DNA from: Oceanicola sp. 22II-s10i
GTDB taxonomy: Bacteria > Pseudomonadota > Alphaproteobacteria > Rhodobacterales > Rhodobacteraceae
Direction: 5' to 3'
Length of the DNA stretch: 64,000 nt
Assembly (NCBI RefSeq): GCF_002210105.1
Contig: NZ_AQQU01000004.1
Span: 1-64,000, forward strand
Each line of letters opens with the position of its first letter. The first letter of the stretch is position 1. Both the position numbers and the translations under genes were made by a program. The notes under the pieces were generated by a model. It worked only from the letters and a program-made list of their open reading frames with translations, did no database searches and was not told the DNA's origin. This document shows positions 39,980-46,184 of the stretch, piece after piece.

Positions 39980-40711
39980 TCAGGGCGGTGCGGCAGGCAT
40001 CGAGAAGGTCACGCACAGCCCGCGGGTCGCGGGCGGCGGCGCGCCGGACAGGCACAATGTGCCGCCGGAGCGCTCGACCACCTTGCAGGCCAGGGCGAGG
40101 CCGACGCCGCTGGAGTCGCATTCGCTGCGCGGTCGCAGGGTGGTCATCAGCTGCATGGCGCGGTCGCGCATGTCGGGGGCGATACCAGGCCCGTCGTCGG
40201 ACAGAGAAAAGGTCACGCCTCCCTGGTCCGACGCGCCCTCTATGCGGATCAGACCCGTGGTTTGATCATGATGACGCACGGCATTGTCCAGAAGTGCACG
40301 GAACATGCGATGGACATCGTCCGGCGGGGCCGTGATCGCGGGCAGGGGGCCATCGGCCTGCAGCGTGAAACCGGGCGGCGGACCGACGTCTGTCCAGGCC
40401 CGGCACAGCGCATCTTTGGTGTCGATGGTGCAGGCCGGGCCACCGACACGGCCGACGCGGCTGTATTCGGTCAGGTCGCGCATCATCCGGTCCGCACGCT
40501 GCACCTGCCCGCGCAGCAGCGAAAGGTGATCCATGATCACCTCCGGCGGCGATTGTGCGGCCAGATCCTCCTCGATCCAGTCGGGGATGACACGCAGAGC
40601 GCGCAGGCTGGCGCGGATGTCGTGTGTCATGTGGTAGAGCATCTGTTCGAACCGCCCCTCGGCATCATCGATGCAAGCGGCTGCCTCGCTGTCCTTCACA
40701 CCAATGCCCAT
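39980..40711 (-). CDS. Soluble sensor histidine kinase
   Basis: 243 residues with no membrane segment and almost no input domain: the dimerisation box appears at once ([16 protein letters not shown], His30), followed by the ATPase domain ([12 protein letters not shown] box; [28 protein letters not shown]). The HD-R-SLRAL box resembles kinases of the phytochrome/Rcp type. The input must come from a partner, perhaps the CheB-CheR-PAS protein 2.2 kb away. It is divergent from the first receiver gene. Confidence 0.85.
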
Positions 40712-40901
40712 GCGTCTGCCCCGATGCTGCTGCCGGATCAGCCTGTCTGAAACAGGTTAAGAGGCCGCAAACTGCGGCGATCCGGCTCGGTAAAATGCAG
40801 TGCAACTCGCAGCACCCGTTAAGCAGTGGGTTACGGTTGGAGGGATAGCGTCCGTCACGTGCCGTTCAGGTGACTGTCATCGACCAACAAGGGGTGCCGC
40901 C

Positions 40902-41594
40902 ATGCCATTGCCTTCCAATGCCTCCATGACCGGCAGGGGCCTGCCTGAGCGGGGCCACCTGTCCCTTCGCGACGGCGACGACATGCGCATCCTCGTATTC
41001 GACGATTCCGAGATTGACGCCGTCCTGATCGAGCAGAACTGTCTGCGCACGGGCCTGCCTGCGGCGGTCACGACGGTTTCGGATTTCGACCAGTATTCCG
41101 ACCATATCGGCGATCAGCGCTACGACCTGATATTTGTCGACTACTACCTGCCGCGTGGCGACGGTCTGGTCGCCTGCGACCTGCTGCGTCGCAGCGTTGC
41201 CAATGCCGATGCCCCGGTCGTCATGGTTTCGGGACACGCCGAGGTCGACGTGGCGGTGGCCGCCATGCAGGCCGGATGTCTCGATTTCATCGACAAGGAC
41301 AGGATCGACCGCGACCGTCTGCGATCGGTGATCATGCAGGCCGCAACTGCGCATCGCCCGTGGCCCGGTCGTGCGGCGCAACCTGACCTCTCGCCGACTG
41401 GCGGCATGATGGACGCCATTAGGTCCATTCTGCGGGAAGAATTGTCGCGTCACGGGGCCGTTCCCCGGCTGCAGGACCTGAAGGTCGCGTTGCAGTCCAT
41501 CGGCTTGCTGGACGGAGAAGGCGGCGAAACCGATTGGGGCCGTTACCTCCAGGGCGAGGATGTCGGCTTTGTCTTTCGCAGAACCCGCCATTGA
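40902..41594 (+). CDS. Stand-alone receiver protein with a C-terminal extension
   Basis: 230 residues. The receiver spans about 28-150, with acidic pair DD (VFDDSEIDA), phospho-acceptor Asp80 (IFVDYYLPRGDG), Ser in MVSGHAE and Lys in FIDKDRI, so it should be phosphorylatable. The last 65 residues (SILREELSRHGAVPRLQDLKVALQSIG...) form a helical segment with no known output domain. An in-frame ATG at 40983 (MRILVFDD) is an alternative start. A 190-bp gap separates it from the divergent kinase. Confidence 0.82.
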   Translation: MPLPSNASMTGRGLPERGHLSLRDGDDMRILVFDDSEIDAVLIEQNCLRTGLPAAVTTVSDFDQYSDHIGDQRYDLIFVDYYLPRGDGLVACDLLRRSVANADAPVVMVSGHAEVDVAVAAMQAGCLDFIDKDRIDRDRLRSVIMQAATAHRPWPGRAAQPDLSPTGGMMDAIRSILREELSRHGAVPRLQDLKVALQSIGLLDGEGGETDWGRYLQGEDVGFVFRRTRH

Positions 41595-41626
41595 CGCCTG
41601 CCGCGTCCATTCATCGGAGGATTGCC

Positions 41627-42235
41627 ATGCACGCCGCTTCGCTCGCCACCGTCTCGACCCGTCCGATTCCCGGACAGGGCTCCATGTCCGCGCTCGTCAT
41701 TGATGACAGCGTCATCGACCGCTACCTGATCTGTCATGCCCTCGCGGATGCCTGCCCAGACCTTAGGGTCGCGGAATGCGCGACCGCCGGCGATGCCCGG
41801 CGATGGCTGGACGGGCACGCGCCGGACATGATCTTTGCCGACCGCATCCTGCCGGACGGAGACGGCGCGGATGTCGCGCTTGGCGCAGCGGGAGACGTCG
41901 CCGTGGTCATCCTGTCCGGAGAGGACTGTCCGGATATCGGCCCGCGCATTGACGCGCGGGCGCGCAGCGTCTTCCTGCACAAGGACGACCTGTCACCGGT
42001 GACGCTGCGCCAGTCTCTGGCCCGTATCCTGCGCCCGGCGGCCCCGGTCATCCCGCTGCGTCCGGACGCCGGATCGGCGATTGCCGCCCTGTCGACCCCG
42101 TCCGGCGAACTGGCGCGTGGCTTGCGGCTTCTGCGCATGATGCGCCTGCAAGGCTCAAGCATTGGGCCAGAAGAACGGGCCGAACTGCTGCAGGAGGTCG
42201 AGGCAATGATCATGCAGCCGCGTCTGCCCGATTGA
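41627..42235 (+). CDS. Stand-alone receiver protein
   Basis: 202 residues; receiver about 21-140 with IDDSVIDRYL, phospho-acceptor Asp72 (IFADRILPDGDG), Ser in ILSGED and Lys in FLHKDD. A 55-residue helical tail follows (GELARGLRLLRMMRLQGSSIGPEERAELL). CGGAGG precedes the ATG. It lies 32 bases after the previous receiver gene, so the two are co-transcribed. Confidence 0.82.
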   Translation: MHAASLATVSTRPIPGQGSMSALVIDDSVIDRYLICHALADACPDLRVAECATAGDARRWLDGHAPDMIFADRILPDGDGADVALGAAGDVAVVILSGEDCPDIGPRIDARARSVFLHKDDLSPVTLRQSLARILRPAAPVIPLRPDAGSAIAALSTPSGELARGLRLLRMMRLQGSSIGPEERAELLQEVEAMIMQPRLPD

Positions 42236-42376
42236 CGGGCCGGTCCGGGCCGGGCTGGACCGAGGATGGCGCGGCATGGTGCGCTTGCGGCAAAGGCAAC
42301 ATGGTCGGGACTTGCCGCACGACAGAGACCCGGAGTTTGCAGATCCGGACCCGGCGCGGCGATGCGTGGCCCTGAC

Positions 42377-42817
42377 CTAGGCGCCGGTGCCACTGTCCCT
42401 GCGGGATGCGGCAGGGGGCAGGCGGTCGATCAGACGTGCCGCATCGGCGGGGCTCATGGGTTTCGACAGGCAGTCCCAGACCATCCCCGAAGCCGAGATC
42501 CGGCGCTGCATGTCGGCGGTCGGCGCCTGCGACAGCATCAGGCAGACGGGCGGCGCGTCCCACGATTCCGAGGCCAGGCTGTCGAGCAGTTGCAGTCCTT
42601 CGCCGTCCGGCAGGTTGAGATCGAGAAGGACGAGGTCGACTGCCGCCGCCGCCGGCGAGGTCAGGATAAAGCGCGCTTCGGCGCATTGCGTGACCTCGAT
42701 ACAGGCGCGAATGCGGCCTGACCGGGTCAGGGCCCGGCGGCACTGGCGCTGGTCGATCTCGTCGTCTTCGACCAGAAGGACTGTGATCGCACGGGCTGTG
42801 GAATCGTCGGGCGTCAT
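42377..42817 (-). CDS. Single-domain response regulator
   Basis: 146 residues, only a receiver: VEDDEIDQRQ acidic pocket, phospho-acceptor Asp66 (LVLLDLNLPDGEG), Ser in LMLSQAP and Lys in CLSKPMS. The start is uncertain: this ATG or an upstream in-frame GTG at 42829; neither has a good ribosome site. It lies 94 bases after the CheB-CheR-PAS gene on the same strand and convergent to the other receivers. Confidence 0.82.
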   Translation of the reverse strand: MTPDDSTARAITVLLVEDDEIDQRQCRRALTRSGRIRACIEVTQCAEARFILTSPAAAAVDLVLLDLNLPDGEGLQLLDSLASESWDAPPVCLMLSQAPTADMQRRISASGMVWDCLSKPMSPADAARLIDRLPPAASRRDSGTGA

Positions 42818-42911
42818 GCGGCAGCACACTCTTTCGCGACGGTCGGCGGGCCGACAGGAGACCGGGCCGGGGTCCTCCCGGCGGCGGCGGGTCGCGGGGC
42901 GTGCGCAGCGC

Positions 42912-45900
42912 TCATGACACCAGACATTCTGCCTGCCGGATCATCAGCAATCCAAAGACATGCGTGATCCGGGAGTTCATGTCCCGGCGGACCTGCCCCG
43001 TCAGGATGCAGGGATGCCTTCGGTCCGTTCCGTCCAGCATCACCGTGGGTTCCTCGAACGGCAGTCCTTCGGAGGTGGCCGCCCCGATCGCCTGTCCGAT
43101 CCTGTCCCTGTCGAGCGGATCGAACTGGCCGAGCAGGGTCTGCAGCGTCCGTCCCTCATCAGGTGACAGCAGATCGCAGAGGTTGCGGCTGAAAAACGTC
43201 TCGCAGTTCACGGCGTCATGCGAATAGAACCCGACGCCGAGCGCCTTCTGCGCCCGGTCGAACTGGTCCAGAAGCATCTCGGTCCGTGTCAGGCTGTTGA
43301 TGTCGCGGCAGACCCCGACGATGCAGCGCGGGCGCCCTTCCTGTTCGCTCAGACGCGCGCCCCGCGCCTCTACCGTGGCATGGGTGCCGTCTTCGCGCTG
43401 CAGGTAAAGACGTAGGTTGAACGGGGCGCCGGTGGCCATCGTGCGTTCGATCGCCGTCTGGAACTCGCGCGAGTTCTGCGGCGAGAAACAGCCCAGCCAG
43501 GTGTCGAAATCCGGCGCACCCTTCTGGCGGGACCGCCCGTGCACGTCATACATGCTGTCCGACCATGAAAGCTGGTTCGACTGGATGTCGAGCCGCCAGT
43601 GCGCGATCTCGGCCATCTCCTCGACCATGTCCATCTTGATCATGAGTTCGTCGGATTCGGTCTCGGTCGCGATCAGCGTGACGCCGCGGATGTCCCGCGT
43701 TTCGCTGAAATAGGGTTCGGCCCTGATCTGGACCAGCTTGCTGCCCGAGACGAAGGTCTCCTCCTGCGGTTCGCGGGTCTGCATGGAATTCGACGCGATG
43801 CGCAGCAGGGAGGGATAGCCCGGCGGCACACTGCATTGCGAGATGTGCATGTTGTCCAGACCGTCGGCGATGTCGAACCGGCGCCGGGCCTGGGCCGAGC
43901 TGTGCAGGATCTGCAACGCGCTGTCGACAACCAGGATCGCGATCGGGGCGGAATGCAGGATCGATTCCAGATCGCGCCGCACGCCTTCCAGTTCCGTCGT
44001 GTTGATCTGCAATTCCTCGTTCACTGTCAGCAGCTCTTCGTTGGAGCTCTGCAGTTCCTCGTTCGAGGTCTCGAGTTCCTCGTTGGTGGCCTGCAGATCC
44101 TCGTTGGAGCTCTGCAGTTCCTCGTTCAGCGACTGCTGTTCCTCGTTCGCCGTCTGCAACTCCTCGATGGTCTGCTGCAACGCCTCGCGGGTCGAGGCCA
44201 CATCGGCCTCGAGCTGGCGCAACTGGTGAACCTCGTAGTCCTTGGCTTCGCCCTCCAGTTCGCGCGGGTCGAAACTGAGCTGCTGGATGGCCAGCAGGGT
44301 GTAGGTTTCCTTGTCGCTCGGCAGCCGCAGCGGATAGGCTTCGAGCTGAACATGGGTGCGGTCCGGGCCGGGCATCTCGTGCCGCGCGCCCCGGCGTCTC
44401 TCGCCGCGTTTCGTGGCGACGGTGCACAGGCTCGGCGCCTCTTCGCGCAGCGGCGATTTCAGCAGCGACAGGGACAGGTCCAGCCGCGTTTCCTCGCCAA
44501 GTTCGATGAAGTCGGACAGGTTGCCGAAGACGCGGATGATGTTGTTCGCCCCGGTCACCAGAACCGAGTTGGGCCCCAGCGAGCGTGCGAGGCCTTCGAA
44601 CATCTCCATATGGATGTCCGGCGGCGCTTCACGTTTCGGACGGGTGCCGCGCGCGGAACCCAGCCAGCGGGGTGCGGGCGTCTGGAAATCCCGCACGCGC
44701 GAAGCCATGTCGCGGCGGGCGATGGTGCGCTTGCGGAACAGGCGGTTGCTGTCCGACAGGATTTCGAAATCGGCGTGCAGTTGGCCGATGGTTTCGGAAC
44801 TGCCGAGGAACAGCACCCCGCGCGGTCGCAGGGCATAGTGCAGACGGTTCAGCACCTTTTCCTGCAGGCTCGGATTGAAATAGATCAGCAGGTTGCGCAT
44901 CGACACGAGGTCGATGTTGATGAAGGGCGGATCCTGAAAGATGTTGTGCTGCGAGAACAGGATCAGCTGCTTCAGCACCGCCTTGACCGCGACCTTGTGG
45001 TCGTCCCTTTCGAAATAGCGGTCGATCAGTTCCGCCGGAATGTCGTTCGCCGCCGCCAGTGGATAGACCCCGCGCCGCCCGATCCGCAGGGCGTTTTCGT
45101 CGATGTCCGTGGCAAAGATCTGGATCATCCGGGCGTCGATCTGGCCGGGGCCGCCGCAGGCTTCGACGATCAGCATGGCGATGGTATAGACCTCTTCGCC
45201 CGTGGCGCAGCCGGCGACCCAGATGCGCAGCGGCTCGCCTTCGTCGCGGGCCTCGATGATCTGGCGGATCTCCATGCCGAGCCGTTCGAACTGGCCGGGG
45301 TCGCGAAAGAACCGGGTGACCGAGATCAGCAGGTCCCGGAACAGGGCATCCACCTCTTTGCTGTTGGTGCGGCAATGGGCGATATACTGGTCGAACGCGG
45401 TGATCCGCAGCGCGGTCATCCGCCGCTTGATGCGGCGCTGGATGGTGGTGTCCTTGTATTCGCGGAAATCGACCTGTGTGCGGGCCAGCAGGATCTGCAT
45501 CAGTTCGCGGGATTCCGCGTCTTTCTCCTCCGCCCGCTTGAACAGGGTCAGGTCGCGCGGACTGGCCATGATCTCGGTGATGTGTTCCGAGATCTGTTCT
45601 GGCGTCAGTACGAGGTCGATGCAGCCGGTTTCCACCGCCGAGGCGGGCATGCCGTCGTATTTCGCGGTGGCCTGATCCTGCGCGATGGTGATCCCGCCGG
45701 CCTCGCGCACCGCCTGCACGCCGTAACTGCCATCCGATCCCGTGCCGGACAGCACGATGGCGATGCATTTTTCCCCGCCCTCGTCGGCAAGGCTGTAGAA
45801 CAACCGGTCGACCGAGGGTTTCGGCGTGCCGGGCCCGCCCGCAGGGTCGACCAGTCGCAGGGCGCCGTCGGACAGGATGACATCCCGGCTGGGCGGCGTG

Positions 45901-46184
45901 ATGTAGATAGTGTCGGGCTCGGGCGCGTCTCCATCCTGCAGTTCCCGGACGGGCAGTTCGGTCTCCCGCGCGACCAGCGTGGACATCAGGCTCTTGTGCG
46001 AGGGCGACAGGTGCTGCGCGATGACGTAACAGGCGCCGGTGCGTGGCGGCAGGTCGCGCACGAAGGCGCTGATGGCCTCAAGACCGCCCGCCGAGGCGGC
46101 TATGCCCACGATCCAGGGCAGCTCGGAATCGTCGGCCAAGTCCCGGCCTCCCGCTGTCGTTCGCAGGTCGGTTGGCAAGGGCAC
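42912..46184 (-). CDS. CheB-CheR-PAS fusion protein without a kinase domain
   Basis: 1090 residues. CheB methylesterase (about 24-205; Ser31 in GIAASAGG, His58 in AQHLSP, Asp151 in GTGSDG), CheR methyltransferase (about 215-490; [14 protein letters not shown]), a coiled coil of NEELQ/SNEEL heptads (about 655-735), then two PAS regions (about 740-870 and 880-1000) and a last PAS-like part. Relatives usually end in a HisKA or HWE kinase; none is present. The GTG start given has a weak site; a TTG at 46139, 7 bases after GGGAGG, would give a protein 15 residues shorter and may be the real start. Confidence 0.87.

What the first reader, a model, noticed from the sequence alone, without database searches (positions are those of the whole stretch)
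39980..46184. Compact signalling island: orphan kinase, three receivers and a CheB-CheR-PAS protein
Five adjacent genes encode a kinase with almost no input domain, three receivers (two with unfamiliar helical tails, one bare) and a CheB-CheR-PAS protein that has sensors but no kinase. All catalytic and phospho-acceptor residues look intact. Together they could form one pathway in which the PAS protein senses, the kinase phosphorylates and the receivers compete or relay. No chemotaxis genes or DNA-binding outputs are nearby.
Basis: partly seen in the sequence, partly recalled or inferred. Interest (0 to 1): 0.52.

Follow-up and report, generated by a model that had tools for sequence, protein, structure and literature searches.

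The report
Sensorless kinase relay beside CheB-CheR-PAS
Five neighbouring genes in a marine bacterium look like a cut-down version of a recurring signalling gene set built around a kinase without a sensor, next to an unusual chemotaxis-type enzyme that carries the only CheB-type domain found in this genome.

Summary
The five genes are real and intact, but form three transcription units and two modules with different histories. Module 1 is a sensorless kinase (HK1) divergent from receiver RR1: neighbours in 13 of 13 same-genus genomes with HK1. A receiver-kinase pair usually stands beside them: smREC-HK2 in 13 of 15 genus loci, another kind (like HK296 and its receiver in P. pacificus) in 4 of 9 loci elsewhere. 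This suggests a relay, sensor kinase > small receiver > HK1 > RR1, wired like Pak-SdrG-PhyT-PhyR. The HK1 clade lacks the H-box proline (0 of 22; 22 of 22 other kinases compared have it). The window and P. nanhaiensis lack HK2-smREC. RR2 looks like an RR1 paralogue. Module 2, the CheB-CheR-PAS protein, sits beside ectoine genes in 7 of 10 genomes. In P. pacificus all five gene types plus two kinases and smREC stand together; the window looks like that locus after deletions. The window's genome lacks canonical cheB in its chemotaxis cluster, so this protein holds its only detected CheB domain. New variant of a known kind; every phosphotransfer step is inferred.

The parts
39980..40711 (-). HK1: sensorless HisKA/HATPase_c kinase, 243 aa, His30; Ser35 in place of the H-box proline
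40712..40901 (.). 190-bp divergent intergenic region between HK1 and RR1
   Evidence: sequence; divergent arrangement in 13 of 13 genus genomes with HK1
40902..41594 (+). RR1: receiver (Asp80 in the 230-aa form) with helical C-terminal tail and a nearly invariant FR near the end; likely partner of HK1
41627..42235 (+). RR2: receiver with two-helix tail; probable RR1 paralogue, seen in a 5-genome clade
42377..42817 (-). RR3: bare receiver, 146 aa; stands where G020 has the receiver of its CheBR-kinase-receiver run
42912..46184 (-). CheBR: CheB methylesterase - CheR methyltransferase - helical stretch - PAS domains, 1090 aa; no REC, no kinase; only CheB domain found in this genome
38557..39873 (-). 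hisH and hisB, the flank of HK1 in the genus loci fetched
   Evidence: (hisB)

Best explanation
The core is a recurring phosphosignalling module. HK1, a kinase with no input domain, is not a sensor: it is a transmitter or phosphotransfer hub that loads RR1, whose helical tail is the output surface. In most relatives its signal comes in trans from a second kinase through a small receiver (in the genus: HK2 > smREC > HK1 > RR1). In the window's lineage HK2 and smREC are gone. RR2, probably an RR1 paralogue, would compete for phosphoryl groups or act as a sink. RR3 and CheBR look like the remains of a second input unit (CheBR-kinase-receiver, complete in G020) that lost its kinase, so RR3 is the best candidate for the small receiver that still feeds or drains HK1. 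Shown: gene order, orthology, absences, intact residues, lack of the H-box proline. Inferred: every phosphotransfer step, its direction, RR3's origin, and RR1's output.
For: HK1-RR1 divergent in 13 of 13 HK1-bearing genus genomes and in 9 of the 11 loci that lie outside the searched G genomes. smREC-HK2 beside the pair in 13 of 15 genus loci; a receiver-kinase pair of the HK296 kind, on HK1's other side, in 4 of 9 others. No close HK2 match in G000 or G007 (best 30% and 29%). his tree: RR2-bearing clade 96/100, CheBR-adjacent clade 81/76, window+G007 90/89; the HK1 tree agrees on the first (84/93) and last (88/81) and leaves G020 open. HK1 clade 0 of 22 with Pro at H+5, against 22 of 22 other kinases, while N143, D172, D173, G176, G202 and G204 are invariant in the 11 HK1 aligned. 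[quoted passage not shown] PMC5964349, abstract and section 12).
Against: The ATP site is intact, which equally fits an ordinary kinase. 5 of 9 loci outside the genus have no small-receiver-kinase pair (Sagittula x2, Yoonia; Roseovarius x2 instead have a Cache-type kinase and a sigma-54 regulator). The partner kinases in the other 4 are of a different branch and lie on the other side of the pair, so the 'four-gene module' is not one inherited unit. The receiver tree does not join RR3 with the G020 receiver or smREC; it puts RR3 on the RR1/RR2 side of a 97/90 branch, with a long-branch warning, and RR3 shares only about 36% with the G020 receiver. No output of RR1 is known; its tail is modelled with low confidence.
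Confidence: 0.4

Rival explanations
1. HK1 is an ordinary, constitutively active or trans-regulated kinase with RR1 as its cognate regulator (RR2 a spare paralogue); CheBR and RR3 are unrelated neighbours that came with the ectoine region.
For: HK1-RR1 without a small-receiver-kinase pair in Sagittula, Roseovarius and Yoonia; CheBR beside ectABC-ask in 7 of 10 genomes, in 5 of them away from HK1; intact ATP site.
Against: H-box proline missing in the whole HK1 clade; a receiver-kinase pair beside HK1-RR1 in 17 of 24 loci.
Confidence: 0.35
2. CheBR is the methylesterase of the cell's chemoreceptors: canonical cheB was deleted and the REC-less CheB domain took over adaptation.
For: One CheB domain in G000, CheBR itself; cheA, cheW, cheR, cheD and an MCP gene are kept in the order of G007, with 323 bp where G007 has cheB; 3 MCPs with methylation-type sites, one ending GWEEF; in G011 CheBR is the only CheB and only CheR domain found.
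Against: CheBR orthologues coexist with a further CheB in G001, G007, G016, G020 and G023, so this is not their usual job; CheBR is not in a che cluster; adaptation might do without CheB, for example through CheD.
Confidence: 0.2
3. One reading: the CheBR PAS domains sense, HK1 phosphorylates, three receivers compete.
For: Adjacency in the window and in G020; no other kinase among the five genes.
Against: CheBR and HK1 share a locus in only 3 of 15 genus loci; CheBR has its own kinase next door in G020 and a fused one in the G025 relative.
Confidence: 0.1
4. A decaying locus with no function left.
For: Both neighbouring kinases are absent; in G007 the CheBR match contains 2 TAG stops; in G008 RR1 lies in two frames.
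Against: All five window frames are open with their expected residues present.
Confidence: 0.06

Closest known systems
Pak-SdrG-PhyT-PhyR phosphorelay (Sphingomonas general stress response), PMC5898713
   Same: Sensor kinase, single-domain receiver, kinase-derived intermediate and output regulator in that order; the intermediate's gene at the output gene's locus
   Different: PhyT is membrane-anchored with a degenerate ATPase domain; HK1 has no input domain and an intact ATP site, and is HisKA-type; RR1 has no sigma-like domain; here the candidate genes cluster in relatives and the sensor arm is missing in the window
MrrA-PhyK-PhyR and LovK-LovR (Caulobacter), PMC5964349
   Same: Single-domain receiver hub; a kinase homologue with conserved CA domain acting as phosphotransferase; a kinase-receiver pair acting as phosphate sink
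   Different: PhyK has a putative periplasmic sensing domain; different kinase and regulator families
CheB/CheR fusion proteins with PAS and kinase domains (KEGG cheBR, recalled)
   Same: CheB-CheR-PAS architecture; the G025 relative continues into HisKA-HATPase
   Different: Ends after the PAS domains; the separate kinase beside it in G020 is missing
Canonical CheB (REC-CheB)
   Same: CheB catalytic domain matched over its full length
   Different: No REC domain, so no evident direct control by CheA phosphorylation

Membership tests
PhyT/PhyK-type phosphotransferases | HWE/HisKA_2-type DHp domain (recalled) | tested here: not met
   Pfam lists HisKA and HATPase models only for HK1, up to E 1
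PhyT/PhyK-type phosphotransferases | Takes phosphate from a single-domain receiver and passes it to an output regulator | not testable with these tools
   needs phosphotransfer assays
PhyR | Sigma-factor-like domain joined to a C-terminal receiver (recalled) | tested here: not met
   RR1 has an N-terminal receiver and a helical tail; Pfam lists Response_reg only
SdrG/MrrA single-domain receivers | FATG-type motif (recalled) | tested here: not met
   Not seen by eye in RR3 or in the G020 smREC
HisKA histidine kinase | H-box plus N, G1 and G2 boxes | tested here: met
   His30, N143, DDGPGI, GxG; HATPase_c E 1e-16; HisKA below its cut-off
HisKA histidine kinase | H-box proline at H+5 | tested here: not met
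   Ser35 in the window; 0 of 22 in the HK1 clade
CheB/CheR fusion protein | CheB and CheR catalytic domains in one chain | tested here: met
   CheB 1-174 of 174 and CheR 2-190 of 195 matched; CheR aligned to 1af7 and 5ftw
Chemotaxis adaptation enzyme | Demethylates chemoreceptors | not testable with these tools
   only CheB domain found in the genome
Conserved five-gene signalling island | Five genes together across genomes | tested here: not met
   1 of 15 genus loci, 2 if the G020 receiver counts as RR3

The most novel reading that the evidence does not exclude
In this species chemotaxis adaptation has been handed over: canonical, CheA-controlled cheB was deleted, and a REC-less CheB-CheR-PAS protein, whose activity would be set by PAS sensing and perhaps by the neighbouring kinase-receiver relay, demethylates the receptors. 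Adaptation would then be tuned by cytoplasmic state (redox, energy or osmotic) instead of by feedback from CheA.
Probability: 0.15. Interest if true: 0.72.

Novelty: new variant of a known kind. Interest (0 to 1): 0.47.

Why it matters
The kinase homologues PhyT and PhyK were shown to be phosphotransferases by biochemistry. A clade of small, sensorless kinases that kept the ATP site, lacks the H-box proline and travels with one regulator offers a compact test of how a kinase becomes a relay, with natural versions that have or lack the second kinase. Separately, a genome whose only CheB domain sits in a CheB-CheR-PAS fusion allows a direct knockout test of what such fusion proteins do.

Tried and rejected
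Five-gene operon: rejected, three units in two orientations and no co-conservation. Horizontal replacement as the reason for low HK1 identity (46% to G007 while hisB is 90%): the HK1 tree repeats window+G007 and the five-genome clade of the his tree, so fast vertical divergence is preferred; not tested formally. RR3 as orthologue of smREC or of the G020 receiver: not supported by the receiver tree, which warns of long branches; kept only as a reading from position and weak similarity. Single gain of RR2 and single loss of HK2-smREC were read off the tree by eye, not computed. A structure search of the RR1 tail was not run, because the tail model is too weak. Literature on CheB-CheR-PAS proteins: searches returned no paper; one search listed 15 of 22 papers, seen as a listing only, none with such a protein in its title; no claim that nothing is in print. 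My first two gene-calling models chose mirror frames and were dropped; later gene lists use the retrained model, which missed HK1 in G010 and smREC in G012 (both found by tblastn). Counts: '15 genus loci' = 13 G genomes with HK1 (window included; match E 4e-42 or better), plus G003 (HK1 fragment and RR1 on separate contigs, L129 and L132) and P. sediminis L115. '9 others' = Mameliella, Sagittula x2, Maliponia, Antarctobacter (cut by the contig end), Roseovarius x2, Yoonia and G023. Left out of the 24: G015, G039, G046 and G053 (more distant matches), L130 (cut HK, no RR1) and L133 (distant kinase only). Sensorless relatives outside the core clade, Yoonia, G039a and G053b, do have the proline, and G053a has not. 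Two of the 22 'other kinases' (HK296 of G020; the cut kinase of Antarctobacter) have no sensor domain in the part seen.
Full report
What is there. The five genes stand as described. HK1 (39980-40711, -) is a HisKA/HATPase_c kinase with about 20 residues before its DHp domain. RR1 (40902-41594, +) and RR2 (41627-42235, +) follow each other 32 bp apart and are divergent from HK1. RR3 (42377-42817, -) and the 1090-residue CheB-CheR-PAS protein (42912-46184, -) face them. The residues expected for catalysis and phosphorylation are present (CheB motifs by eye). HisKA of HK1 and the receiver of RR2 score below Pfam's cut-offs. They form three transcription units.

Where it comes from. The window is G000:C34.

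The recurring core. Of 22 same-genus genomes (the window's included) HK1 occurs in 13, and in 13 of these 13 RR1 is its divergent neighbour; in G008 that RR1 lies in two frames. hisB follows HK1 in the genus loci fetched. A scan of named genomes gave 25 loci, 21 of them with the pair on one contig (several are the same genomes again), including Mameliella, Sagittula, Maliponia, Antarctobacter, Roseovarius and Yoonia.

The neighbours that come with it. On RR1's side, 13 of 15 genus loci carry a small receiver (smREC) and a kinase HK2 of 495-604 residues; the G020 HK2, the only genus HK2 scanned against Pfam, has PAS. Mameliella, Maliponia, Antarctobacter and G023 have a receiver-kinase pair on HK1's side instead; three of the four kinases were in the tree and group with HK296 of G020 (95/90), not with HK2 of the genus, and Antarctobacter's best match is also HK296. 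The Mameliella kinase carries a periplasmic-binding-protein domain. Sagittula and Yoonia have no such partner; Roseovarius has a Cache-type kinase with a sigma-54 regulator. Among the genus loci only the window and G007 lack smREC-HK2, and neither genome has a close HK2 match elsewhere.

History. A tree of four his proteins groups the five RR2-bearing genomes (96/100), the three with CheBR at the locus (81/76), and window with G007 (90/89). The HK1 tree agrees on the five (84/93) and on window with G007 (88/81) but leaves G020 open. RR1 and RR2 receivers group together with one receiver of G046, 98/94, which fits RR2 as an RR1 paralogue. In G020 the run on one strand is CheBR, a 296-residue kinase (HK296), a receiver, HK2, smREC, facing RR2, RR1 and HK1, with ectR and ectAB beyond. 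The window is this arrangement without the two kinases and smREC. tblastn with HK2, HK296 and the receivers hit only HK1 and RR3 at the locus. The distant G025 protein is one CheB-CheR-PAS-HisKA-HATPase chain followed by a receiver, which supports reading CheBR-HK296-receiver as one split unit. Against taking RR3 as that receiver: the tree does not join them.

A changed kinase. In a supported clade of 22 HK1 proteins (97/92) none has proline five residues after the phospho-accepting histidine; Ser, Cys, Thr, Gly, Ala, Phe or Tyr stands there. All 22 other kinases compared have it. Deeper sensorless relatives (Yoonia, G039a) still have proline, which suggests that the sensor went before the proline. 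In CpxA this highly conserved proline causes the kink near the histidine and is one of two points at which the helix bends (PMC3904827, passages). The ATP-site residues are invariant in the 11 HK1 aligned.

How it may work. The set sensor kinase, single receiver, sensorless kinase, tailed receiver resembles Pak-SdrG-PhyT-PhyR (PMC5898713, abstract and passages) and MrrA-PhyK-PhyR, where PhyK keeps a conserved CA domain yet acts as a phosphotransferase and LovK-LovR is a phosphate sink (PMC5964349, abstract and section 12). By analogy HK1 would be the relay step, RR1 the output, RR2 a sink. The families differ: HK1 is HisKA-type, RR1 has no sigma-like domain, and the receivers lack the motif I recall for SdrG and MrrA. 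No transfer has been shown.

CheBR. Its ten best-matching genomes (over 700 bits in 100 relatives, window included) have it beside ectoine genes in seven: G001, G003, G010, G016, G017 (convergent with ask) and G007, G020 (16 and 30 bp behind the MarR-type gene here called ectR, by gene call). The ect identities rest on NCBIfam for G007 (ectA, ectB, ectC and an aspartate kinase over their cut-offs; ectR only a weak MarR-type match and a recalled name) and on BLAST to G007 for the rest. The window's own ect genes are on contig C4 without CheBR. G011 and G023 are unlinked too. The link may be hitch-hiking, and the two configurations may come from one event. G005 and G008 have the ect genes at the HK1 locus without CheBR.

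An unexpected gap. A whole-genome search for the CheB domain gave one match in G000, this protein. Six of the eight genomes tested have a further stand-alone CheB; G000 and G011 do not. G000 keeps cheA, cheW, cheR, cheD, receiver genes and an MCP gene in the order of G007, but has 323 bp where G007 has cheB, with no match to the CheB catalytic domain in that interval; G001, G005, G016 and G020 have cheB next to an MCP domain. G000 has three MCPs with methylation-type sites (pattern recalled), one ending in GWEEF. So CheBR is the only CheB candidate found. Whether it acts on receptors is unknown, and five of the eight genomes hold both a CheBR of this family and a further CheB.

Verdict. Observation confirmed; interpretation partly supported. 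The pair HK1-RR1 is the conserved unit; the five-gene island looks like a recent, reduced mosaic. It is a new variant of known two-component and phosphorelay logic, with two direct experimental tests.

Noticed in passing
L137:9226-9548 (G000:C23) against L140:7271-8393 (G007:C11): Canonical cheB is missing from the window genome's chemotaxis cluster, while cheA, cheW, cheR, cheD and the MCP gene are kept in order.
   Followed up: yes
L088, L090-L093 and L058, L061: CheBR orthologues sit beside ectABC-ask or ectR in 7 of 10 genomes, in two different configurations: a possible link to osmoprotection.
   Followed up: partly
G011: G011 has CheA/CheW-type matches and an MCP, but CheBR is its only CheB and its only CheR domain found.
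   Followed up: partly
L058:4753-7941: In G007 the CheBR frame is interrupted near the last PAS domain (gene calls of 949 and 83 aa; 2 TAG in the match).
   Followed up: no
L060:10258-10939: In G008 the receiver and tail of RR1 lie in two frames (frameshift or assembly error).
   Followed up: partly
L073:9776-12954 (G053): A genome of another genus has two HK1-like kinases and two RR1-like receivers in a row, also beside hisB and hisH.
   Followed up: no
   Followed up: no
window 39980-42235: HK1, RR1 and RR2 diverge far faster than the flanking his genes (37-49% against 85-92% identity to G007).
   Followed up: partly
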